The notes beneath the pieces are model-generated. The model searched no databases, had not been told where the DNA came from, and saw nothing but the letters and a program-made list of their open reading frames with translations. Below are positions 14,438 through 28,819 of a stretch of 42,289 bases of DNA, in pieces. The number at the start of each line of letters is the position of its first letter. The stretch's first letter is position 1. Made by a program: the position numbers and the translations under genes. The stretch lies in contig JAQSDX010000031.1 in NCBI GenBank assembly GCA_029946125.1, positions 1 through 42,289 of the forward strand. Reading direction: 5' to 3'. The stretch is from Candidatus Methylobacter titanis. Lineage in GTDB: Bacteria > Pseudomonadota > Gammaproteobacteria > Methylococcales > Methylomonadaceae.

Positions 14438-15010
14438 ATGTGGTATTTCACCTGGATACTTGGATTATTACTGGCCTGCTCATTAGGCATTATCAACGTG
14501 CTTCGGCTGGAGGCGCAGGAAACATGGGATAAAGAACATATCCCCTTAGATCCGCTAACCCAGTTAATGACCAAAGACACGATGCTGGGGAGGTTAAAGG
14601 AAAAAATCGAGAACTCCAAACGCAACGGCTTTCCTTTTTCCATTATTTTTATCAGCTTAAAGGATTTTAAAACTAAGCATAATAATTTCCCTGACTATGA
14701 AATGGACGCCATATTGCGTGGTGCGGCCGATTGTTTTAAACAAGACATCAGGGCGGGCGTCGATATTGCGGCAAGAATAGATGAACAGGATTTTCTGATT
14801 GCGATGCCGGGTTCTTCATTGAAAAAAGCCGAGGAAATCGCGACACAGATTAAAAATCAAATTTTAGAGCAGGTTAAAGCGCCCAGTGCCTTGGTTATTG
14901 AAGTAGCTACCGGGGTTGCTGAATACGCCAATTACCCTAAAAAATTTTCCACTACAGCCAATGAAGTAGATGAATTGATCAGAATTGCAACGGCAAAGAG
15001 TCGCTTGTGA
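14438..15010 (+). CDS. CydX-like subunit fused to a degenerate GGDEF domain
   Basis: 190 aa. Residues 1-28 (MWYFTWILGLLLACSLGI and on) are a clear CydX, the small single-helix subunit that stabilises the bd oxidase; a normal CydX stops near residue 35. Here the frame continues into a cytoplasmic GGDEF-fold domain from about residue 38, DPLTQLMTKDTMLGRL, a usual GGDEF opening. The signature loop is RIDEQDF (113-119) in place of R-x-GGDEF. The metal-site aspartate is lost in FISLKDFKTKHNN, and the RxxD inhibitory site is not intact. Diguanylate cyclase activity is therefore unlikely. It follows cydB by 9 bp with AGGAGG ahead of the ATG. The C-terminus stops at the junction with an IS5-type remnant, so the last residues may have been altered by that insertion. 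Confidence 0.85.
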   Translation: MWYFTWILGLLLACSLGIINVLRLEAQETWDKEHIPLDPLTQLMTKDTMLGRLKEKIENSKRNGFPFSIIFISLKDFKTKHNNFPDYEMDAILRGAADCFKQDIRAGVDIAARIDEQDFLIAMPGSSLKKAEEIATQIKNQILEQVKAPSALVIEVATGVAEYANYPKKFSTTANEVDELIRIATAKSRL

Positions 15011-15535
15011 AGCACCATTCCTGACTTCAGCAGTCTTTTTAAACGCAGTATTACCTTACCTAAGCATATTCTGACCAAAGCGATGGAACCAGGTAGTCTC
15101 GTGATTGTTGATTTCACAGGGCTCAAGGTCTATGGTAAAGACGAATGGCATCAGGAAAAACACGATGTTCCTGCTCGACGCACCTGGCGCAAATTGCATC
15201 TTGCGATCGATGAAAATCATCAAGTGCCGACGTGCGAACTCACTACGCCAGAAGCGGGCGATGCCACTGCAGTTTCAGATCTGCTCGCGCAAATTACCAC
15301 CACTTTCGATACCTTCATGGGTGATGGCGCCTACGATGGCGAACCCGTTTCTCAAGCTGTTTTAGACAAGCAAGCTGATGCGCAAGTAATCATGCCGCCA
15401 CACACGACAGCCGTTGTTTCAAACGCTGGCGACACACAGCGAGACCAGCATATTCAAACCATTGCGCAACAACGGCGAATCGCATGGCAGCAAAAAACGG
15501 AAGCATGGACAGTACGTCTGCACTCAACATAACGT
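15011..15535 (+). pseudogene. IS5-family DDE transposase fragment
   Basis: The reading continues in frame right after the preceding stop: STIPDFSSLFKRS, then GSLVIVDFTGLKVYG (first catalytic Asp), RRTWRKLHLAIDENH and FMGDGAYDGEPV (second Asp). The N-terminal third is missing. At the 3' end the normal last region with the catalytic Glu is lost: after QQRRIAWQQKT the frame ends in an unrelated short tail. An ALN-like segment in another frame downstream suggests a deletion plus a frameshift. The ATG at 15083 is internal. Not functional. Confidence 0.8.
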
Positions 15536-19380: not shown

Positions 19381-19550
19381 ACCCTTGCAGATAAGCTTAA
19401 ACAATTGGCAGGACTTGTTGACGATGTTTTTCAGTTAATGCACCTTCTGACAAACATAGGGTTGGGAGAGATTCCGGACGCCTAGGACAGACAGCTTTGC
19501 TACAGTACGGAGTTTCCGGATGACTTTTTCAAGAACCAGTTGCAAAAAAT

Positions 19551-19571
19551 TTAAAAACTTGAACATCGAGT
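19551..19571. repeat. 21-bp repeat, copy 1
   Basis: This stretch, starting TTAAAAACTTG and ending CATCGAGT, is identical to the complement of 42237-42257. The second copy lies exactly where the nqrF coding sequence is broken off. It is therefore likely to be the end of a mobile element. Confidence 0.5.
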
Positions 19572-19767
19572 TATAGGATTTTTTAAGGAAATTCTACTTC
19601 CTAGTAAGAACCTTTACTTCTCAATAAAAAGATTTCACTTAATTATATTTATCCTGTTGATTTTTAAAGCAATAAAATTTATTTTAGTTATGTTTCCCGA
19701 AGAGATAAGTGTCCGCGCATAAACCAATTATTTTTGTAAGCAATTGATATGTAATTATATTTACGAG

Positions 19768-19783
19768 TGGCATGTGAATTGCT
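19768..19783 (+). promoter_or_regulatory. sigma-54 (RpoN) promoter of the CS2/COS hydrolase-like gene
   Basis: TGGCATGTGAATTGCT has the -24 GG and -12 GC elements exactly 10 bases apart, as sigma-54 requires, and fits the consensus TGGCAC-N5-TTGCW with one mismatch. It lies about 70 bp before the ATG of the gene at 19855. A sigma-54 activator gene (20875) is on the same strand two genes downstream. No clear pair of enhancer palindromes could be seen upstream. Confidence 0.75.
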
Positions 19784-19854
19784 GAAGTATGGTGTGGTGG
19801 CAACACCATTTCAGGCTTTAAGTTTTTTACTTCACTATTGAGGATAATAAGATT

Positions 19855-20508
19855 ATGACAACATTGAAAGGTAAGCTGGAAAAGCGGACTACAGATTATG
19901 ATTATTGGGCGCAACGTCGCCGTTATGGGGCTGAAGGACACAATAACGCAAGTTTGTGGGTTCTTGCTTGTATGGATGAGCGTTTGCCGGTAGACGAGGC
20001 ACTGGGCATTCATGTAGATACACCTGTCGGCGGTGGAGATGCGCATTGTTTTCGTAATGCGGGTGGAATTGTAACTGACGATGCGATCCGCTCTGCTATG
20101 TTGACGTGTAATTTTTTTGGGACCAAGGAAATTGTAATTGTGCAGCACACCCAGTGCGGTATGCTTTCGGCGAATGCCCAGGATCTTGAGAAAATGTTTT
20201 GCGACAAAGGGATCGACACGGACAATATAGCGCTTGATCCGACATTGCCTGAACTAAAGCTTGAAAAAGGCTCATTTGCAAAGTGGATCGGAATGATGGA
20301 CGATGTCGATGTAACGTGTATGAGAACGATTGATGTTTTTAAGAATCACCCACTTATACCTAAGGATGTTGTTATCAGTGGTTGGGTTTGGGAAGTTGAA
20401 ACCCGGCGATTGAGAGCGCCTACACTTGATCCTGAAAAACGCTTAAGAACCGATGTTTCTTCTACTGCGTTTGGGGTGAATACTAAACAACCTGCTCGTT
20501 GGGGCTAG
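19855..20508 (+). CDS. beta-carbonic-anhydrase-fold hydrolase, CS2/COS hydrolase-like
   Basis: 217 aa. The zinc site is C39, H98 and C101 (LACMDER and QHTQCGM), with the D41-R43 dyad of beta-carbonic anhydrases. Beyond that it matches, from memory, the archaeal CS2 hydrolase of Acidianus: RNAGGIVTDDAIRSA, NFFGTKEIVIVQHTQCGM, LDPTLPEL, and NHPLIPKDVVISGWVWEVET followed by RRLRAP. These enzymes turn CS2 and/or COS into H2S and CO2, unlike ordinary carbonic anhydrases. A six-residue insert separates C39 from H98 relative to the archaeal enzyme. A sigma-54 promoter precedes it and an intrinsic terminator follows. Substrate (CS2, COS or only CO2) cannot be fixed from sequence. Confidence 0.8.
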   Translation: MTTLKGKLEKRTTDYDYWAQRRRYGAEGHNNASLWVLACMDERLPVDEALGIHVDTPVGGGDAHCFRNAGGIVTDDAIRSAMLTCNFFGTKEIVIVQHTQCGMLSANAQDLEKMFCDKGIDTDNIALDPTLPELKLEKGSFAKWIGMMDDVDVTCMRTIDVFKNHPLIPKDVVISGWVWEVETRRLRAPTLDPEKRLRTDVSSTAFGVNTKQPARWG

Positions 20509-20519
20509 AAAGCCTACAT

Positions 20520-20556
20520 AACTGGAGAATGCTTAATGTGTTCCCCAGTTTTTTTT
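20520..20556 (+). terminator. intrinsic terminator
   Basis: The stem AACTGGAGAA/TTCCCCAGTT has an 11-base loop and one mismatch, and runs directly into a T-tract of eight. It lies 12 bp after the stop of the CS2/COS hydrolase-like gene and before the FmdB gene. The hydrolase thus probably has its own transcript, with the downstream genes made by read-through or another promoter. Confidence 0.8.
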
Positions 20557-20573
20557 ATAGTTGAGGGTAAAGT

Positions 20574-20822
20574 ATGCCAACTTATGATTATAGATGTACC
20601 CAATGCAAGGTACAGTTTGAAGCAAATCATCGAATGAATGCTATTCGTCCTACTTGTCCGACTTGCGGCGAGGCATGTGAGAAACTCATTCTATCGCCCC
20701 CAGCTGCGCATGGTTACAAAGCGATCGGTCGCGAACAGGCGATGCACTCGTTACAACCGAAAGCACCGAATAATAGGCATCAACATGGCCCCAGTTGCGG
20801 TTGTAAATCATCGTCATCATGA
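20574..20822 (+). CDS. FmdB-family zinc ribbon protein
   Basis: 82 aa. The first 45 residues are the FmdB-type zinc ribbon: MPTYDYRCTQC, then CPTCG, then CEKLILSPP. The tail is low-complexity and ends HGPSCGCKSSSS, giving extra Cys and His residues that could bind metal. FmdB was named for a putative regulator of the amide-degradation gene fmdA; the biochemical role is unsettled. RBS GAGGG lies about 6 bases before the ATG. Its place between the CS2/COS hydrolase-like gene and the sigma-54 activator suggests a linked role. Confidence 0.88.
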   Translation: MPTYDYRCTQCKVQFEANHRMNAIRPTCPTCGEACEKLILSPPAAHGYKAIGREQAMHSLQPKAPNNRHQHGPSCGCKSSSS

Positions 20823-20874
20823 CATTCTGTGCCAAGCAATACATAAAGTTAAATTTTCGTAGACAAGGTCTTTG

Positions 20875-22464
20875 ATGATAATGAAAAATAAATTATTGTC
20901 TCGCTTAACTCCAACTTCATTTCTTCAGGCCTTTGTGATTCAAAGTATGAAGTTATGGCGCAAGAAAAATTTAGGGCAACAGAGCAATGACAACTATATC
21001 CAACATCTTGGCTTGTTGGCGAGCAGTTCTTTAGAAAAAATTGTTAGGGAGCAATTAGAGTATGAAAATACATTAACGTATGACCAATATGCCGATGTTA
21101 TCATCAAAATTAAGAATCAAATCGGTGGCGGATTTTCTAGGGTCTCAAGCGATGTAGGTACTATCCGCGTTGAAAATACACGTTGTCCGTTTGGTGAGAT
21201 GGTAAAAGAAACGCCTGAGCTGTGTCAAATGACATCTTCGGTTTTTGGTGGTATTGCCGCGCGAAATTTCGGGTACGCAAAAGTCGAATTAAAAAAACGG
21301 ATTGCTACTGGCGATACGTATTGCGACATCAGCATTCATTTGGATAAGGAGCTGAGTCAGGCGAGATCTGGGGATGAATACCACAACCAGGAAGGCTCTA
21401 TCATTTCTAAATTGAATTCTACCGAAACTATTGTGCAGGTAACAGAGGAGATAGAGAAAAATTGGTGTCATTGTGGGGCGACTGAATCTGATCCTCGGCA
21501 AAATTCGCAAAATATCGTTATTGGGCAATCGCAAGCGATGCGAGAAGTTTTTGATTCAATACAGATAATTGCTCCGACCATGGTTAATGTGCTGATAGGT
21601 GGTGAGACAGGGGTTGGTAAAGAGATTATTGCTCGAGCGATACACGTCGGCAGCGGACGTAACCCGGAAAGGTTTATTGCTGTAAATTGTGCCGCTATAG
21701 CTGAGACTTTGATTGAAAGTGCTTTATTTGGCCATGAAAAAGGTGCGTTCACTGGAGCTTATAATGTTCATAAGGGATTTTTCGAGAGAGCTTGTACTGG
21801 TACACTGTTTTTGGATGAAATAGACAGCTTGAGTTTGTCAGGGCAAGCAAAGTTGCTACGTATACTTCAAGAGGGCGAATTTGAAAGAGTGGGTGGCAGA
21901 CAGGCGATCAAGGCGGATGTCCGGGTTATCGTTGCCGCTAATCAATCAATCAAAGACATGGTGTTGGCAGGCGATTTTCGAAAAGATCTTTTTTATCGGT
22001 TAAACGTTGTTCCTATTCAGATCCCACCTTTGCGAGATAGGCGCGAAGACATTGGAGCTTTAATTGATTTTTTTCTAAAGCAGTTATCGAATAAATATCA
22101 AAAGCCTAGAAAAACTCTTGGTGAAAAGGCATGGCACAAAGTGATGATCTATGATTGGCCCGGCAATATTCGGGAATTGGAAAGCGTTTTGGAGCATGCG
22201 TTTTTGTTCGCACAGGGAGCTATTATTGAGGATGTTTCTGTCGATTGTAGTGATTTAAATGTAGGTCATATTTACACAGGAAGTCTGAATATGACAAAGA
22301 AGAAAGTTGCTGGTGAAATTGAAGTTAAAATGCTTCATGATGCATTAAAGAAATTTTCTGGAAACGTGAGTGCAACCGCAAAAGAAATTGGAATGACTCC
22401 ACGGGCTGTCCATCAAAAACTGAAAAAACATCATATCGAAGCGGCTACTTATAGAGACAAATAG
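20875..22464 (+). CDS. sigma-54-dependent transcriptional activator with MetOD1-like sensor domain
   Basis: About 529 aa. The N-terminal sensor (about 45-160) has RCPFGE, PELCQMTSSVFGGIAARNFG and GDTYCDISIHL, the three-cysteine pattern of the MetOD1 domain (C105, C118, C151). The central AAA+ domain has Walker A GETGVGKE (244-251), the sigma-54 contact loop GAFTGA (291-296), Walker B TLFLDEI and WPGNIREL. A Fis-type HTH is at the C-terminus (GNVSATAKEIGMTPRAVHQK). Numbering is from TTG 20872; ATG 20875 with AAGG about 8 bases upstream is the more likely start. It is the obvious regulator of the sigma-54 promoter at 19768. Cysteines in the sensor could bind metal or a sulfur ligand. Confidence 0.9.
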   Translation: MIMKNKLLSRLTPTSFLQAFVIQSMKLWRKKNLGQQSNDNYIQHLGLLASSSLEKIVREQLEYENTLTYDQYADVIIKIKNQIGGGFSRVSSDVGTIRVENTRCPFGEMVKETPELCQMTSSVFGGIAARNFGYAKVELKKRIATGDTYCDISIHLDKELSQARSGDEYHNQEGSIISKLNSTETIVQVTEEIEKNWCHCGATESDPRQNSQNIVIGQSQAMREVFDSIQIIAPTMVNVLIGGETGVGKEIIARAIHVGSGRNPERFIAVNCAAIAETLIESALFGHEKGAFTGAYNVHKGFFERACTGTLFLDEIDSLSLSGQAKLLRILQEGEFERVGGRQAIKADVRVIVAANQSIKDMVLAGDFRKDLFYRLNVVPIQIPPLRDRREDIGALIDFFLKQLSNKYQKPRKTLGEKAWHKVMIYDWPGNIRELESVLEHAFLFAQGAIIEDVSVDCSDLNVGHIYTGSLNMTKKKVAGEIEVKMLHDALKKFSGNVSATAKEIGMTPRAVHQKLKKHHIEAATYRDK

Positions 22465-22613
22465 AAAACCAGTCCGGTTATAACTTCGCGACAGTTGTAG
22501 AGCGGTTTTCGGTGCAGCGACCAGAAGATATTTCAATCATGCGGTGACGATCCCTATCTAAACAGGATGTCCTTTTATTAAGTTTTTTTGACCACAAAGA
22601 TCGAGGTTATTCC

Positions 22614-22997
22614 ATGTATTACATAGTTGAAACAAATAAATCATTCGACCAAGCATCTGCAGACCTTGAATCAGCCGTTAAACATCATGGCTTCGGGGTG
22701 TTGCATGTCCACGACCTGGGTGCCACGCTACGCAGCAAAGGCATTGCTTTTGATAAAGAGTGCAAGATTTTTGAAGTCTGCAATCCGGGGCAGGCTGCAA
22801 AAGTTTTGTCCGCCGATATGCGCTTGAACATGGCGTTGCCGTGTCGTATTTCGGTGTATACAGAGACAGGCAAAACCATGATCGGCCTCATCAAGCCGTT
22901 GCAAATGCTTTCGGCACTATCTCAGGATGCCGAATTAGTCGAAGTTGCCAAAGAGGTTGAGGAGAAAACCATCCAGATGGTTGACGAGGCGAAATAA
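22614..22997 (+). CDS. DUF302 family protein
   Basis: 127 aa. MYYIVETNKSFDQASADLES, GFGVLHVHDLGATLRSKGI, KIFEVCNPGQAAKVL and LPCRISVYTE are the DUF302 core. The function of the family is not established; members often sit near sulfur oxidation or metal resistance genes. GAGG lies 7 bases before the ATG. It is 149 bp downstream of the activator gene and could be on its own transcript. C-terminal residues are a charged helix. Confidence 0.9.
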   Translation: MYYIVETNKSFDQASADLESAVKHHGFGVLHVHDLGATLRSKGIAFDKECKIFEVCNPGQAAKVLSADMRLNMALPCRISVYTETGKTMIGLIKPLQMLSALSQDAELVEVAKEVEEKTIQMVDEAK

Positions 22998-23057
22998 GTA
23001 CTCGTCACATAAACAGTTCCATTAACTTTGGATAAGCAAAAGTGGCGTGCCTGAAAA

Positions 23058-23261
23058 ATGCGCTACTTTAGTCTGCCTGACTTTGGCGGCGTGATTGACA
23101 GTGAGCGGGCAAGAAACCCATTCCCGAATTATGCTAAAGCCAAAGGCAAGTATGGTTTATTGCAGCTTGATGCCATTGCTGAAACCTATTGGACTCTTCA
23201 TAAACACCCCAGCGCATGGACTCATGACTTGGATTTGAGGCCGTTTAAAAAACCTTTTTAG
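23058..23261 (+). pseudogene. short-chain dehydrogenase, C-terminal remnant
   Basis: The 67 residues match only the last quarter of short-chain dehydrogenase/reductase proteins: YGLLQLDAIAETYWTLHKHP then SAWTHDLDLRPFKKPF. The glycine-rich NAD-binding motif and the YxxxK site are absent. An in-frame TGA lies two codons before the ATG, so nothing upstream belongs to it. Likely a leftover of a deleted gene. Confidence 0.65.
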
Positions 23262-23300
23262 AACGTGTTATGCTGGAAACAAAAAAGGGTATTTGTGGTA

Positions 23301-23331
23301 GTTGTTGAAACATGTAACATGTTTCAACAAC
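23301..23331. promoter_or_regulatory. perfect 31-bp palindrome
   Basis: Arms of 15 bases, GTTGTTGAAACATGT and its exact complement, around one central A. There is no T-run, so terminator function is unlikely. The size and core GAAACATGT-A-ACATGTTTC suit a dimeric regulator of the TetR type, but no regulator gene is adjacent. Confidence 0.5.
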
Positions 23332-23435
23332 ACTCATGAAAACATGGGCGAAGACTCCGCTGAATTAATTATTTTTGAATTAGCACCTGCCAAATAAATT
23401 TATCAGCAATCAATGGGGACGATGTAGCTCAATAC

Positions 23436-23461
23436 TGTTGGCTTAAACTTTTAAGCCAACA
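23436..23461. repeat. perfect hairpin, 11-bp arms
   Basis: TGTTGGCTTAA-ACTT-TTAAGCCAACA. No T-run follows on either strand. It could be a stem-loop of the upstream message or a repeat end; nothing decides. Confidence 0.4.
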
Positions 23462-23597
23462 TACAAACGGCTGCCGGTGCAGACTTATCCGCGCAATGCG
23501 TGTAAATTCGCGTCTTAAGCCCAAAGTTCATTAACCTAATAGCACTGCGTTCAGCAAAGTCGATCCATTTTATCGTTTATCAGATTGCTTGTGAAAC

Positions 23598-23614
23598 GGC
23601 GTTATTGAATAAAT
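23598..23614. repeat. isolated IS5-type terminal repeat
   Basis: GGCGTTATTGAATAAAT matches, with one change, the complement of the end at 15564-15581. No transposase lies beside it. It is 8 bp upstream of the next start codon, so it replaces the native upstream region of the gene at 23622. Confidence 0.5.
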
Positions 23615-23621
23615 AAACAGT

Positions 23622-24392
23622 ATGAATCGCACAATTGCCAACATCATCATCGACATAATTGCTGCATTTCTATTCTTAGGCATGATTGCGACGGGTTACC
23701 TACTGCGTTTTCCGTTGCCACCAGGCAGCAACAAAACTTTGAGTTTATGGGGTTACACCCGCCACCAGTGGGGTGATATCCATTTTTGGATAAGCCAGGG
23801 ACTTTTGGTAGTGCTTGTGGTTCACTTAGTGCTGCATTGGAACTGGATAGTGACCGTTATAGGCAAGCGCTGCCATTTGGTAACGACTGCACACCCTTCA
23901 CTAATCCGCAGTGGCATCTTAACAGCGAGTATAGTCATTCTTACGATGACGCTCTTCGCGTGGACGGCTCAAAATAGTGTTAAAGAAACAGCCAGGCCAA
24001 TGCGGGGAAAACACTGGGCACATACCAGTCAGGTTAATGAATCTTTAGCCACAGTCCAAGTGCAGAGCAGTATCGATCAAGAGAGTATAGAGTTTTGGAA
24101 AAATATCTATCCGATATTCGAGAACAATTGCCTACCATGCCATGGCCCGCAAAAACAACTAGCCCATTTTCGTATTGATCGCAGTGAGGATTTCTTCGGA
24201 AGTAATGATCGCCCGCCCCTGATTATGCCGAAACAGAGCGCTATAAGCCCGTTAATCGCGATTGTGTCTGGTACAAAAAAAGATATGCCTATGGCAGAAA
24301 GGCACAAACTTTCCGAACAAGACGTAGCGTTACTCAAAGCCTGGATAGACTCAGGAGCCGAGTGGCCTATAAAAACTGACGCTAAGAAATAG
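23622..24392 (+). CDS. DUF4405 membrane cytochrome b fused to a c-type cytochrome domain
   Basis: 256 aa. The first 120 residues form three membrane helices with histidines at 54, 68 and 72 (GDIHFW, VVHLVLHW), typical of DUF4405 b-type cytochrome-like proteins. After helix 3 a periplasmic domain starts with IYPIFENNCLPCHGPQKQ. One CxxCH heme c site (C170-H174) is seen, followed by AHFRIDRSEDFF and MPMAERHKLSEQDVALLKAW, as in PSCyt1-type cytochromes of planctomycete style. It could carry electrons between periplasmic cytochromes and the quinone pool. No catalytic partner is encoded beside it. Confidence 0.8.
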   Translation: MNRTIANIIIDIIAAFLFLGMIATGYLLRFPLPPGSNKTLSLWGYTRHQWGDIHFWISQGLLVVLVVHLVLHWNWIVTVIGKRCHLVTTAHPSLIRSGILTASIVILTMTLFAWTAQNSVKETARPMRGKHWAHTSQVNESLATVQVQSSIDQESIEFWKNIYPIFENNCLPCHGPQKQLAHFRIDRSEDFFGSNDRPPLIMPKQSAISPLIAIVSGTKKDMPMAERHKLSEQDVALLKAWIDSGAEWPIKTDAKK

Positions 24393-24540
24393 GTATAATG
24401 ACGCGCACAACGTATATCCAATAAACGGATTTACTGGATACGCCTCACGAATGAAATACCTTAAATATCGCCGACTGCTGCACGTATTATTGATCCGCCT
24501 ACTTGTGTGCAGCTATCTTTAATTTGAAGGGAGAATCCAG

Positions 24541-24924
24541 ATGCCGTCATGGCTCACATTCGTAATTATCGGTGTTCTCGGTGGTATATCAGCGGGCCTC
24601 TTCGGCATCGGTGGAGGCATCGTCATCGTACCGGCACTTATTTATTGGGCTGGTTTCTCTCAGCATATGGCAACGGGAACGTCCATTGCGGTGCTGCTTC
24701 CGCCCATAGGTCTCGCCGCAGCATTCGAATATTACCGGCACGGCAATGTAGATGTAAGGGTTGCCGCCATTCTGGCCGCAACCATGTTCCTCGGGTCGTG
24801 GATTGGCGCTTACTTCGCGAATCAAATGGCGGGGCCGCAGCTCCGTCTCATCTTTGGCCTTTTTGTTTGCGGTCTTGGTATGTACCTCGTATATGGCGCT
24901 TGTAAGCGCCTCGGCTGGCTCTGA
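24541..24924 (+). CDS. half-size TSUP (TauE/SafE-like) permease
   Basis: 127 aa, about half the usual 250. The N-terminus is the TSUP repeat: GGISAGLFGIGGGIVIVPAL followed by ATGTSIAVLLPPIGLAAAFEYY. There are four hydrophobic segments. GAYFANQMAGPQLRLIFGLF is the end of one TSUP repeat. RBS AAGGGAGA lies about 6 bases before the ATG. TSUP proteins move sulfite, sulfonates or other small anions; a single-repeat protein would need to dimerise. It appears complete, with a proper start and stop. Confidence 0.82.
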   Translation: MPSWLTFVIIGVLGGISAGLFGIGGGIVIVPALIYWAGFSQHMATGTSIAVLLPPIGLAAAFEYYRHGNVDVRVAAILAATMFLGSWIGAYFANQMAGPQLRLIFGLFVCGLGMYLVYGACKRLGWL

Positions 24925-25559: not shown

Positions 25560-27692
25560 TCAATATCGCGCGTCTTGCGGTTTTTTATCCTTCGGCCAAT
25601 CCTTTACTTTGTCCGGGAAATCGGGACGTGGCTGGTGGGAGAAATACTCGGCGACATCAACAGCTTCTTGATCAGAAAGACCGCCTTGCCCCAGAGGAAA
25701 CTTCTCGTGCAATCCTATTGGCATGTTTCTTTTCACAAACGCCGCGGCTGTATAGGTGCGGGCCATACCGGCGCCTATGTTGAATGAATCATCTCCCCAT
25801 AGCGGAGGATAAATGTATCGACCATCCGCCTGTTTCAAGCCTTCGCCTTCTTTGCCGTGACACACAGCACACTGTAGCGAATAGACTTTTTTGCCGTTTT
25901 CAATATCTGGCTTGATTGCCGTATCAACCTTGCCCACACCACGGCCAGCGACTTTGTCCTGCGACTTGGTTTCACCTTTCATCCAATTGAAATAGGCCAC
26001 CATCGCCTTCATGTCTGCGGATTCCACCGCTAGCGGTTTGCCGTTCATTGAACGCCTGAAACAGCCATTGATCCGGTCTTCAAGTGTGATGATTCTTGAC
26101 GCACGTGGGGCATAGCCTGGAAAGAAAGCAGAAACACCCACGAAAGGCGAACCATCAGCCACGGTGCCTGCGTTCAGGTGACAACTTGTGCAATTCAGTG
26201 CATTACCGACGTTCTGTGGCAATAATGCTTGGGTTTCAAGGTGCAAACGCATGCCGCGAATCAACTGCTCTGGGTTGGGTTGGGTAAGCAGATTCGCTAG
26301 ACGCGGAGTTTCAAATTTGGGGGAATCTATGGTCTGAGAGTCGAGTTGTCGGTGCAATTTCTTAACCTGAGCTGCATTGATTGGCCCGGCGTTATTGCCC
26401 CAACTTTCACGCACAAAGCTCAGGATTTCAGCCAATTCCTGATCAGCCAATCGACTGAAAGCCGGCATGGTGTATACGCGCGGGTGCGCCGCCGTTTGCG
26501 CTGTTTTCCAACCCGTCAAGGTGATATGAACAAGTGTCGATGGATCCGACGATGTAACAGAAGCGTTCTGCGCTAACGACGGGAAGATTCCTTTTACTCC
26601 CGCACCATCCTGACGATGGCAAGCGACGCAGAATTGCAGATAGCCTAACCCACCCCGTGTGGAGAAAAGGTTGAGAGGAATTGTTGATGTCGCCGCATGA
26701 ACTGGCACTGCGGGTATAGGTAAATCGTTTTTCCCGGGTGGCAGCGATTTCAGATAGATGGCAATGGCTGTCAAATCGTCATCGCTAAAGTATTGGGTGC
26801 TGTGATGAATGACTTCGACCATGCTGCCGGAAACGCTACCGAAGCGATTCTGCCCGGTCTTAAGCAGCAAGACAGTATCTTCCACTGCCCATAAGTTACG
26901 CAGACTGAGTGCTCGCCAAGCCTCTACCGTTTCGCCTGAAAGATAGAATTTGCCGTTAGAACCTTCTTGAGTCATAGCTTTCTCTTGAAAGCCAATGCCG
27001 CGGGGCGTGTGGCAGGCACCGCAATGTCCCGGACCTTGTACCAAATAAGCTCCGCGGTTCCATCTGGCATCTTTGTTCGTATCAGACTTGAAGGGAGTCC
27101 CATCAAGGAATGCCCCGTTCCAGAGCGACAGACCCCAACGCATGCTGAACGGCCAGGACATCTCCGCAGGCTTGTTGAGCTGCTTGACTGGCGCAACTCC
27201 CTGAGTCAGATAAGCGTACAACGCGCGCATGTCTTCACCGCTCATCTTGGCGTAGGAAGGGTATGGCATGGCGGAGTACAGATTGCGCCCATCTGAGGCG
27301 ACTCCCTTGCGCATGGCGCGATCAAATTGCTCAAAAGAATACTTACCGATGCCTGTTTCGACATCGGGTGTTATGTTGGTGGAATAGAGTGAGCCAAACG
27401 GCGTCTTGAGTTCCAATCCGCCGGACATCAATTTTTCATTGGGTACGGTGTGGCAGGCGATGCAGTCTCCCAGGCGGGCCACATACTCCCCACGATTGAT
27501 CAGAGCTGATTTCTTTTCGAAAGCCGTGGTTACTTGTAAAGCGAGATTAGCTCCAGATGGCCTAAGTTCAATAGCCCAAGCACAGTGACTGAAAAGCAAC
27601 AACGCGCCAATAAGCAGCACCGGATAAAACTTAGTAGTAGCTATTACAAACCTCCTTAAAGTGTCAAACAGCTTTGAAAATGTGCCCGTCAA
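25560..27692 (-). CDS. pentaheme cytochrome c: triheme dehydrogenase-type cytochrome fused to a TsdA-like thiosulfate dehydrogenase
   Basis: 710 aa periplasmic protein with a signal peptide (about 1-40, ending AWA). Five CxxCH sites are present: C77-H81, C224-H228, C355-H359, C501-H505 and C608-H612. The first three with ISTNITPD-like YSTNITPDVETGIG and RGAYLVQGPGHCGACHTPR match the triheme subunit of alcohol/gluconate dehydrogenases. From about 470 onward it resembles TsdA: ALNCTSCHLNAGT, PFVGVSAFFPGYAPRA, LEDRINGCFRRSMNG and LQCAVCHGKEGEG. C544 in INGCFRRS corresponds to the unusual Cys heme ligand of TsdA, which oxidises thiosulfate to tetrathionate. Start is TTG with AGAGG about 8 bases upstream. 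A truncated IS element ends 25 bp upstream, so the original promoter may be lost. Confidence 0.85.
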   Translation of the reverse strand: MTGTFSKLFDTLRRFVIATTKFYPVLLIGALLLFSHCAWAIELRPSGANLALQVTTAFEKKSALINRGEYVARLGDCIACHTVPNEKLMSGGLELKTPFGSLYSTNITPDVETGIGKYSFEQFDRAMRKGVASDGRNLYSAMPYPSYAKMSGEDMRALYAYLTQGVAPVKQLNKPAEMSWPFSMRWGLSLWNGAFLDGTPFKSDTNKDARWNRGAYLVQGPGHCGACHTPRGIGFQEKAMTQEGSNGKFYLSGETVEAWRALSLRNLWAVEDTVLLLKTGQNRFGSVSGSMVEVIHHSTQYFSDDDLTAIAIYLKSLPPGKNDLPIPAVPVHAATSTIPLNLFSTRGGLGYLQFCVACHRQDGAGVKGIFPSLAQNASVTSSDPSTLVHITLTGWKTAQTAAHPRVYTMPAFSRLADQELAEILSFVRESWGNNAGPINAAQVKKLHRQLDSQTIDSPKFETPRLANLLTQPNPEQLIRGMRLHLETQALLPQNVGNALNCTSCHLNAGTVADGSPFVGVSAFFPGYAPRASRIITLEDRINGCFRRSMNGKPLAVESADMKAMVAYFNWMKGETKSQDKVAGRGVGKVDTAIKPDIENGKKVYSLQCAVCHGKEGEGLKQADGRYIYPPLWGDDSFNIGAGMARTYTAAAFVKRNMPIGLHEKFPLGQGGLSDQEAVDVAEYFSHQPRPDFPDKVKDWPKDKKPQDARY

Positions 27693-27717
27693 GAGCGTCC
27701 TCTCAAGAAGCTCATAT

Positions 27718-28381
27718 TAAGCTAATTTCTCGGCTTTCGCTTTGAAACTGTTTAAAGGCGCGTAGACAGTGCTATTAAACAGCGTGGCAAATTGCTTAAT
27801 GCCCATATCGATGCCAACGATGGTCGTTGATTTATGCGGCAATAACTCGGCTTCATATTCGGTTTGAATGGAAATATACCAGTATTTCCCTTTACGGCTT
27901 ACGGTGATGTTCTTGGCTTCGCCGACAATCTTGCGGCTATTACGATAGTTTAACCAACCGATTTTTGGCAAAAACACTTGGCTTTTTTCTTGGTCTATCT
28001 TAAAACCTTGCGGGTAGCGAAAGCTGTCGCGCTGGCCTTTTTTCTTGAAAACAGGGATACGTTTTAACGGCTGGTTTTTGTCAAACGCATCTTTAAAGGC
28101 TTTCTCCAAATCCTTGAGTTTTTGCTGTATTGCCTGGGATGGCAGTTCTCTTAAGAAGCCGCATTCATCGTATTGTTTCCATAAGGTTGCCCAGAAGTTA
28201 AGCTCTTGATACCACAGCAACGGCGCTTTTTGTTCAAGGCGATCAAGATTTAGCGCCAGTCCTTTATTCCAGACAAAGCGACTTCCGCCCGCAAAGTTAG
28301 CTAATTGCTGGCTAACCGCTGGCTAACCGCTGGCGTTGCTTTGAGCTGGAACTTAAAGGCTTTGCGTATAGTCTTTTTCAT
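27718..28381 (-). pseudogene. tnpB: IS200/IS605-family TnpB, frameshifted and truncated
   Basis: N-terminal half of a TnpB. From ATG 28381 it reads MKKTIRKAFKFQLKATPAVS and then breaks: an 11-bp tandem duplication (28307-28317 and 28318-28328, GCTGGCTAACC) shifts the frame. Removing one copy restores QQLANFAGGSRFVWNKGLAL and then LLWYQELNFWATLWKQ. The rest reads normally through FKIDQEKSQVFLPKIGW to GIDMGIKQFATL (first RuvC aspartate) and ends at EKLA followed by a stop. The second half, with the remaining RuvC motifs and the zinc ribbon, is missing. Confidence 0.88.
28307..28328. repeat. 11-bp tandem duplication inside tnpB
   Basis: GCTGGCTAACC occurs twice in a row and is followed by a partial third GCTGG. 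The unit length is not a multiple of 3 and breaks the tnpB frame, so it arose after the gene was functional. Confidence 0.85.
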
Positions 28382-28413
28382 AGTGCTATACTAGCATAAT
28401 TTTTAATTGGTCT

Positions 28414-28819
28414 ATGCAAAACAATCAAGACATTCGTCATGGTAGGCACTGTGTTTTTAATCTTCATGTTCATTTGGTCTTTGTGACCAAATACCGCCGT
28501 GGCGTATTCACTCAAAGCGTGATTGATGATCTAAGGGACATCTTCACCCAGGTTTGTGCTGACTTTGAAGCGGAACTGGTAGAGTTTGATGGCGAGGACG
28601 ATCATGTTCATCTGTCCACCAAAAGTTTCGATCTCGTCATTGGTGAACAGTCTTAAAGGGGTATCAAGCCGAATGATTCGCAAGAAGGATTATCCTGAAA
28701 TCAAAAAGAAATTGTGGAGGGGCGCATTATGGTCGCCCAGTTACTTTGCCGGGAGTTGCGGTGGCGCGCCTATAGCTATTATTCGTCAATACATTGAACA
28801 ACAAAGAACGCCAAAATAG
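28414..28819 (+). pseudogene. tnpA: IS200-type TnpA transposase (HUH/Y1), frameshifted
   Basis: The first part reads HCVFNLHVHLVFVTKYRRGV and DHVHL, the HUH motif. It then changes frame into PPKVSISSLVNSLKGVSSR, SYFAGSCGGAPI and IIRQYIEQQ, which carries the catalytic tyrosine. Family members usually read DHVHLLVNYPPKV here; about 11 bases are missing after DHVHL (near 28614), which breaks the frame. It is divergent from tnpB, as in IS605 elements. The element can no longer make its own transposase. Confidence 0.85.

What the first reader, a model, noticed from the sequence alone, without database searches (positions are those of the whole stretch)
19768..22464. CS2/COS hydrolase-like enzyme under a sigma-54 promoter with its own MetOD1-type activator
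The enzyme shares long motifs with the archaeal CS2 hydrolase, not just the beta-CA zinc site. A sigma-54 promoter with ideal 10-base GG-GC spacing lies upstream, and a sigma-54 activator with a three-cysteine sensor lies two genes downstream. Together this looks like an inducible system for CS2 or COS, which I have not seen described in this kind of bacterium.
Basis: partly seen in the sequence, partly recalled or inferred. Interest (0 to 1): 0.85.

Follow-up and report, generated by a model that had tools for sequence, protein, structure and literature searches.

The report
Regulated carbon disulfide hydrolase gene cassette
A methane-eating bacterium carries a small gene cassette that very probably breaks down carbon disulfide and carbonyl sulfide under its own sigma-54 switch, and the same cassette recurs in many ammonia-oxidising and sulfur-oxidising bacteria.

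Summary
Window 19855-20508 encodes an enzyme whose best solved match is CS2 hydrolase 3TEN (173 bits; next carbonic anhydrase 82, COS hydrolase 64), and trees place it with 3TEN, apart from carbonic anhydrases and COS hydrolase. Its Phe-Phe motif, called characteristic of CS2 hydrolase in print, is in 98 of 98 relatives compared and in none of 18 methanotroph carbonic anhydrases. A sigma-54 promoter lies upstream; an FmdB zinc ribbon and a MetOD1-sensor sigma-54 activator lie downstream. New here: this is a conserved cassette. Of the 80 relatives kept, 73 have the activator, 76 FmdB, 75 the promoter. Paired dyads (TGAAG-N5-CTTCA, 20 bases apart; degenerate in the window, 19587-19621) lie upstream; in 125 genomes of the Nitrosospira family, 29 of 30 such pairs sit upstream of a hydrolase gene, one of them 1.6 kb away. 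In 12 of 81 neighbourhoods, mostly nitrifiers, sulfide:quinone oxidoreductase follows, some with a sulfite exporter or persulfide dioxygenase. Catalysis, inducer and sigma-54 dependence are inferred, not measured. The enzyme is a known kind; the dedicated regulatory module looks undescribed in the papers I could search.

The parts
19587..19601 (+). upstream dyad 1 (GGAAATTCTACTTCC), probable activator binding site
   Evidence: PWM from 37 sites of other loci; as a single site 1.8% of shuffles score as high, as a pair at 20-base spacing 0 of 500. Degenerate: 3 of 10 arm positions differ from TGAAG-N5-CTTCA
19607..19621 (+). upstream dyad 2 (AGAACCTTTACTTCT), 20 bases after dyad 1
   Evidence: also 3 of 10 arm positions off consensus
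19768..19783 (+). sigma-54 (-24/-12) promoter TGGCATGTGAATTGCT
   Evidence: GG-N10-GC; conserved upstream in relatives
19855..20508 (+). CS2/COS hydrolase (beta-CA fold), 217 aa; conserved C39, D41, R43, F87, F88, H98, C101
20520..20557 (+). hairpin plus T-run between hydrolase and fmdB (possible terminator or attenuator)
   Evidence: -13.6 kcal/mol; not reported by the consensus scan; not a family trait (12 of 81 loci at -8 or lower against 6 of 81 shuffled)
20574..20822 (+). FmdB-type zinc-ribbon protein, 82 aa
   Evidence: PF09723 6.2e-12, TIGR02605 2.2e-13; in 76 of 80 relatives
20872..22464 (+). sigma-54-dependent activator: MetOD1 sensor + AAA+ + Fis-type HTH; start codon uncertain (TTG 20872, ATG 20875 or ATG 20881)
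   Evidence: sensor found in 73 of 80 relatives
20962..21339 (+). MetOD1 sensor domain with invariant Cys105, Cys118, Cys151
   Evidence: PF18546 3.2e-14; 66 of 66 rows; model of V4R/TRAPP/H-NOX-like fold
21517..22020 (+). sigma-54 interaction AAA+ domain (GAFTGA loop visible in the translation)
   Evidence: PF00158 1.1e-66; translation

Best explanation
This is an inducible CS2/COS-hydrolysis cassette. The hydrolase, a zinc enzyme of beta-carbonic-anhydrase fold in the CS2-hydrolase clade, converts CS2 (by way of COS) and COS with water to CO2 and H2S. Its gene is read by RNA polymerase with sigma-54 from the promoter at 19768. The activator encoded two genes downstream binds the paired dyads at 19587 and 19607, and its AAA+ domain opens the promoter when the MetOD1 (V4R-like) three-cysteine sensor meets its signal. 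The H2S formed is oxidised by sulfide:quinone oxidoreductase (on another contig of this genome; downstream on the same strand at some relatives). FmdB is a conserved small zinc-ribbon partner of unknown role. In methane and ammonia oxidisers the likely benefit is removal of a toxic volatile; in sulfur oxidisers also sulfide supply. Shown by sequence: family, motifs, promoter, dyads, gene order, and that in one nitrifier family the dyad pair occurs almost only at this gene. Inferred: catalysis, the inducer (CS2, COS or a product), binding of the dyads by this activator, the benefit.
For: 3TEN is the best PDB match by 91 bits. It shares a clade with the window enzyme: 38 of 48 rows, split 100/100, and 17 of 27 rows, 99/100, with one outgroup row. 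Phe-Phe is in 98 of 98 relatives compared (window included, near-duplicates not removed); one of the six search peptides contains FF, so most rows are not independent of it, but the 17 rows found by whole-protein search also all have it. Leu-Leu stands there in 18 of 18 methanotroph carbonic anhydrases and in COS hydrolase 3VQJ; of four PDB carbonic anhydrases three have LL and 3LAS has QL. PMC6382920 calls Phe-Phe characteristic (passage). Cassette: activator and promoter together in 73 of 80, neither in 5, promoter without activator in 2. Dyad with a 5-base gap in 56 of 76 loci that have the promoter (of 81 with the window), 4.6 expected from shuffles; other gaps 2 to 21. In 125 genomes 30 dyad pairs, reversed-pattern control 0; set beside, 28 lie within 400 bases upstream of a hydrolase gene, one 1.6 kb upstream, one beside an activator in a genome without the hydrolase. 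Downstream on the same strand within 7 kb: SQOR in 12 of 81 neighbourhoods, TauE in 8 and persulfide-dioxygenase-like in 4, each of these with SQOR. Own genome: rpoN, pmoA, SQOR relative at 50% identity.
Against: No activity, expression or binding data. CS2 versus COS cannot be decided by sequence. The window's dyads are degenerate. All three sulfide genes together on one strand are seen in one locus only (L037); in the window itself the next genes (DUF302, cytochrome, short TauE) are not conserved with the cassette. More distant carriers can lack the cassette: of 17 rows found by whole-protein search, FmdB is near 12 and the sensor near 9 (one of these at 31% identity), most with only 1.5 kb of flank; a haloarchaeal and a mycobacterial plasmid copy with 4 kb flanks have neither. 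Among the 80, L075 has about 8 kb on both sides and lacks all three. No link with ammonia monooxygenase within the nitrifier family: AMO in 20 of 35 hydrolase-positive and 47 of 90 hydrolase-negative genomes (my tally), though amo is often missing from draft assemblies (recalled). The AlphaFold model of the enzyme was poor (pLDDT 61) and was not used.
Confidence: 0.77

Rival explanations
1. The enzyme is mainly a COS hydrolase, induced by COS (for example from thiocyanate breakdown), and CS2 is a minor substrate.
For: COS is the intermediate of CS2 hydrolysis (established chemistry); close relatives sit in sulfur and thiocyanate users such as Thiohalobacter thiocyanaticus and Thiobacillus (record titles).
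Against: The known COS hydrolase (3VQJ) and a methanotroph homologue of it (L111, 1.4e-110) form a separate clade with Leu-Leu in place of Phe-Phe.
Confidence: 0.25
2. It is an ordinary beta-carbonic anhydrase for CO2/bicarbonate, regulated by nitrogen or carbon status through sigma-54.
For: Same fold and zinc site; Pfam names it Pro_CA; plasmid records annotate relatives as carbonic anhydrase.
Against: Tree placement and Phe-Phe motif; the genome has three further PF00484 matches, one of them with an in-frame stop; SQOR, TauE and persulfide-dioxygenase neighbours at some relatives; sporadic distribution, unlike a housekeeping enzyme.
Confidence: 0.06
3. The hydrolase is real, but the activator senses a thiol, sulfide, a metal or an unrelated ligand rather than CS2 or COS.
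For: MetOD1 shares three cysteines with V4R sensors and with ATC hydrolase (PMC5847659, passage); the model resembles MopR/PoxR/DmpR sensors only at fold level.
Against: In the nitrifier family the dyad pair is found at this gene in 29 of 30 cases, which fits a signal special to this substrate better than a general one.
Confidence: 0.4

Closest known systems
CS2 hydrolase of Acidianus A1-3 (PDB 3TEN/3TEO, EC 3.13.1.5)
   Same: Clade, zinc ligands, Asp-Arg dyad, Phe-Phe motif, 89 of 165 aligned residues
   Different: The window enzyme has a 2-residue and a 6-residue insert (TPVGGG) and a longer C-terminal tail; the second insert is in 94 of 98 relatives. These may hinder the interlocked-ring form (inference)
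CS2 hydrolases of Acidithiobacillus thiooxidans (Smeulders 2013; paper not held)
   Same: From recall of its abstract: the strain S1p enzyme has inserts at 26-27 and 56-61 (TPAGGG) and a longer tail, forms octamers and hydrolyses CS2 and COS; the window enzyme has the same layout
   Different: No sequence of it was at hand, so no alignment was made; how those genes are regulated is not known to me
COS hydrolase of Thiobacillus thioparus (PDB 3VQJ)
   Same: Beta-CA fold and zinc site
   Different: Separate clade, Leu-Leu instead of Phe-Phe, 47 of 191 aligned residues identical
MopR/PoxR/DmpR-type phenol-responsive sigma-54 activators (V4R sensor)

Membership tests
CS2 hydrolase (EC 3.13.1.5) | Grouping with a biochemically proven CS2 hydrolase, apart from carbonic anhydrases and COS hydrolase | tested here: met
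   100/100; 99/100, one outgroup row; 3TEN and the outgroup are long branches and inner order is weakly supported
CS2 hydrolase (EC 3.13.1.5) | Phe-Phe motif | tested here: met
   F87 F88; 3TEN FF; 98 of 98 relatives, partly selected by a search peptide with FF, but 17 of 17 found otherwise; LL in 3VQJ and 18 of 18 methanotroph CAs, QL in 3LAS
CS2 hydrolase (EC 3.13.1.5) | Cys-His-Cys zinc site and Asp-Arg dyad | tested here: met
   C39, D41, R43, H98, C101 in 98 of 98; shared with the beta-CA rows compared
CS2 hydrolase (EC 3.13.1.5) | Converts CS2 and COS to H2S, negligible CO2 hydration | not testable with these tools
   needs an enzyme assay
CS2 hydrolase (EC 3.13.1.5) | Octamer ring or catenane assembly | not testable with these tools
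   inserts noted; model too poor
COS hydrolase (3VQJ type) | Grouping with 3VQJ | tested here: not met
   separate clade
Sigma-54-dependent activator with MetOD1 sensor | MetOD1, sigma-54 AAA+ domain and Fis-type HTH, each over the Pfam cut-off | tested here: met
   53.6, 224.1 and 36.7 bits against cut-offs 23.8, 20.2 and 22
Sigma-54-dependent activator with MetOD1 sensor | Nearby -24/-12 promoter with upstream sites | tested here: met
Sigma-54-dependent activator with MetOD1 sensor | Binds and activates this promoter | not testable with these tools
   needs binding and transcription assays
V4R phenol sensors (MopR/DmpR) | V4R-type fold | tested here: inconclusive

The most novel reading that the evidence does not exclude
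The MetOD1 activator is a dedicated CS2/COS-responsive transcription factor, the first such sensor, working through a one-target regulon (paired TGAAG-N5-CTTCA dyads plus a sigma-54 promoter); the cassette moves between methane-, ammonia- and sulfur-oxidisers and lets copper-monooxygenase bacteria survive and use CS2, an inhibitor of ammonia monooxygenase.
Probability: 0.35. Interest if true: 0.8.

Novelty: new variant of a known kind. Interest (0 to 1): 0.62.

Why it matters
Biological removal of CS2 and COS is part of the global sulfur budget, but in databases these enzymes pass as carbonic anhydrases and I found nothing on how they are switched on. A dedicated switch with a defined candidate binding site makes induction testable in cultured nitrifiers and methanotrophs, gives markers (Phe-Phe plus cassette) to tell CS2 hydrolases from carbonic anhydrases in genomes, and could explain how some nitrifiers and methanotrophs cope with an inhibitor of their key enzyme.

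Tried and rejected
DUF302, cytochrome and TauE ORFs downstream (22614-24924) as parts: rejected. Apart from one 29% DUF302 match in L054 none of them, nor the multihaem protein at 25560-27692, is matched in the loci; and L005, the 96% relative, shares with the window only 19481-22534 as a long block, plus one 63-base match.

A conserved terminator after the hydrolase: rejected as a family trait, 12 of 81 against 6 of 81 shuffled.

Profile search of the sensor against PDB sequences: no match up to E 1. AlphaFold model of the hydrolase: too poor to use.

Link of the hydrolase with AMO inside the nitrifier family: none seen (20 of 35 against 47 of 90).

The first dyad scan took any gap from 3 to 9 and gave a weak contrast (65 of 81 against 47.9 shuffled); only the 5-base gap, counted apart, stands out. 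The dyad's form was read from these same loci, so one search is partly circular. One search asks something new (are there other sites in the genomes?), but its pattern comes from nitrifier loci, and it covers one family.

The promoter and activator co-occurrence has a small Fisher value; the loci are related, so I do not use it.

Papers: searches with CS2 hydrolase; carbon disulfide hydrolase; MetOD1; and combinations with methanotroph, Nitrosomonas, sigma-54, carbonyl sulfide and A. thiooxidans. Passages were seen in PMC13098186, PMC8209446, PMC6382920, PMC5847659, PMC7170481, PMC6548844, PMC5248467, PMC5037610, PMC13352647 and PMC4136832; the others only as listings. None of this describes the cassette or its regulation. 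The 2013 paper on bacterial CS2 hydrolases is not held.
Full report
WHAT IS THERE. The window belongs to a 3.5-Mb genome with pmoA and rpoN; the closest relative of the enzyme, 96% identical, is in a Methylobacter MAG (L005), so the host is taken to be a Methylobacter-like methanotroph (inference). The cassette reads, on the + strand: dyad pair 19587-19621, sigma-54 promoter 19768-19783, hydrolase 19855-20508, FmdB zinc ribbon 20574-20822, activator 20872-22464.

THE ENZYME. phmmer against PDB sequences ranks 3TEN (CS2 hydrolase) first at 173 bits, then 3LAS 82, 5ZTP 71, COS hydrolase 3VQJ 64. In a tree of 48 rows, 38 rows with 3TEN are split from the carbonic anhydrases and COS hydrolase at 100/100; with one outgroup row the clade of 17 of 27 rows keeps 99/100 (a second intended outgroup, L002, was not picked up by the script). 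3TEN and the outgroup are long branches, so the inner order is not to be trusted. In an alignment of 98 relatives (window included, near-duplicates not removed; 37 of them in the first tree) the zinc ligands, the Asp-Arg dyad and Phe-Phe are invariant. The loci were fetched by six short peptides, one of which holds FF, so part of that invariance is selection; the 17 rows found by whole-protein search (L087, L107-L110, L113-L124) have FF too. 18 of 18 methanotroph carbonic anhydrases (clade D is my label) and 3VQJ have Leu-Leu; of four PDB carbonic anhydrases three have LL and 3LAS has QL. PMC6382920 calls Phe-Phe characteristic of CS2 hydrolase and reports one putative case in Thioalkalivibrio (passages). 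PMC8209446 says that the CS2 hydrolases of Acidianus and A. thiooxidans and the COS hydrolase of T. thioparus showed negligible or no CO2 hydration (passage). The window enzyme has a TPVGGG insert, present in 94 of 98, and a longer tail than 3TEN; from recall this is the layout of the A. thiooxidans S1p enzyme, an octamer. The genome has three further PF00484 matches, one with an in-frame stop.

THE DYADS. Of 81 loci (window included) 76 have a promoter by the script; of these, 56 have TGAAG-N5-CTTCA (at most 2 arm mismatches) upstream of it, 4.6 expected from shuffles, while other gap lengths give 2 to 21; copies are most often 20 bases apart. The window's own pair is degenerate but as a pair scores above all of 500 shuffles. 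A search for the nitrifier form of the pair (one mismatch allowed) in the 125 genomes of the family of L037 (Nitrosospira briensis) gave 30 sites in 28 genomes, and none for the reversed pattern. Set beside, 27 of these 28 genomes are among the 35 that have the hydrolase (E <= 1e-60); 28 sites lie within about 400 bases upstream of a hydrolase gene, one lies 1.6 kb upstream (G142), and one (G089) lies beside a divergent activator in a genome without the hydrolase. The two genomes with two hydrolase genes have two sites. Eight genomes with the hydrolase have no such pair. This is what a one-target regulator would look like; that the activator itself binds the dyads is inference.

THE PRODUCT ROUTE. 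Within 7 kb downstream on the same strand a sulfide:quinone oxidoreductase (best PDB match mitochondrial SQOR 6MP5, 5.6e-102) is found in 12 of 81 neighbourhoods, ten of them by record title Nitrosomonas, Nitrosospira or Nitrosovibrio. Eight of the 12 also have TauE/SafE and four a persulfide-dioxygenase-like protein (4YSK 4.6e-116, ETHE1 4.9e-14; that 4YSK is a persulfide dioxygenase is recalled). All three on one strand occur only in L037; in L014 the dioxygenase-like gene is on the other strand. CS2 -> H2S -> persulfide -> sulfite -> export is my inference from these. The window's genome has an SQOR relative on another contig, 50% identical. Two Methylomonas loci and a Methylobacter plasmid copy have a ZIP metal transporter and a cupin gene beside the activator.

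DISTRIBUTION. 35 of 125 genomes of the nitrifier family, 13 of 369 sampled class genomes, the own one included, at E <= 1e-30, 3 of 61 relatives, the own one included, below 1e-100. L005 shares with the window only 19481-22534 as a long block, and one copy lies on a plasmid: the cassette behaves like a mobile unit (inference). AMO is no commoner among carriers inside the family: 20 of 35 against 47 of 90. That CS2 inhibits ammonia monooxygenase rests on the title of Hyman 1990 in the reference list of PMC7170481.

KNOWN OR NEW. The enzyme kind is known from Acidianus and Acidithiobacillus. PMC13098186 lists carbon disulfide hydrolase activity within its beta-D clade (passage). I found no description of the regulatory cassette, or of its place in methanotrophs and nitrifiers, in the searches; most subscription papers are not held, so this is a weak negative.

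Noticed in passing
window 14438-15010: A CydX-type small subunit of cytochrome bd oxidase (PF08173, residues 1-27) fused to a GGDEF domain whose signature looks degenerate (by eye), next to cydA and cydB; matches over most of its length, at 39-83% identity, in 19 of 60 related genomes.
   Followed up: partly
window 25560-27692 (-): One 710-aa protein joins several cytochrome c domains with a SoxA/TsdA-like domain: a possible sulfur-compound-oxidising multihaem fusion.
   Followed up: no
window 24541-24924: TauE/SafE ORF covers only about half of the family profile (2-107 of 237), possibly truncated.
   Followed up: no
L126 (G089:C17, around 5632): Divergent MetOD1 activator with a perfect dyad pair in a genome without a hydrolase match at 1e-60; a methyltransferase-like and an SDR-like ORF (by eye) lie on the other side.
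   Followed up: partly
L111: A methanotroph of the same family carries a COS hydrolase of the 3VQJ type (1.4e-110), apart from the CS2 clade.
   Followed up: partly
L047 and L055, about -1470 and 0 relative to the hydrolase start: A second ORF of the hydrolase cluster lies just upstream of the first: tandem copies or a related enzyme.
   Followed up: no
L013 9096-9734: The activator's sensor reading frame holds one internal stop codon.
   Followed up: no
window 15083-15532 and 27717-28656: A transposase ORF (DDE_Tnp_1) and ORFs that look like TnpB and an IS200-type transposase (by eye) lie on either side of the region.
   Followed up: no
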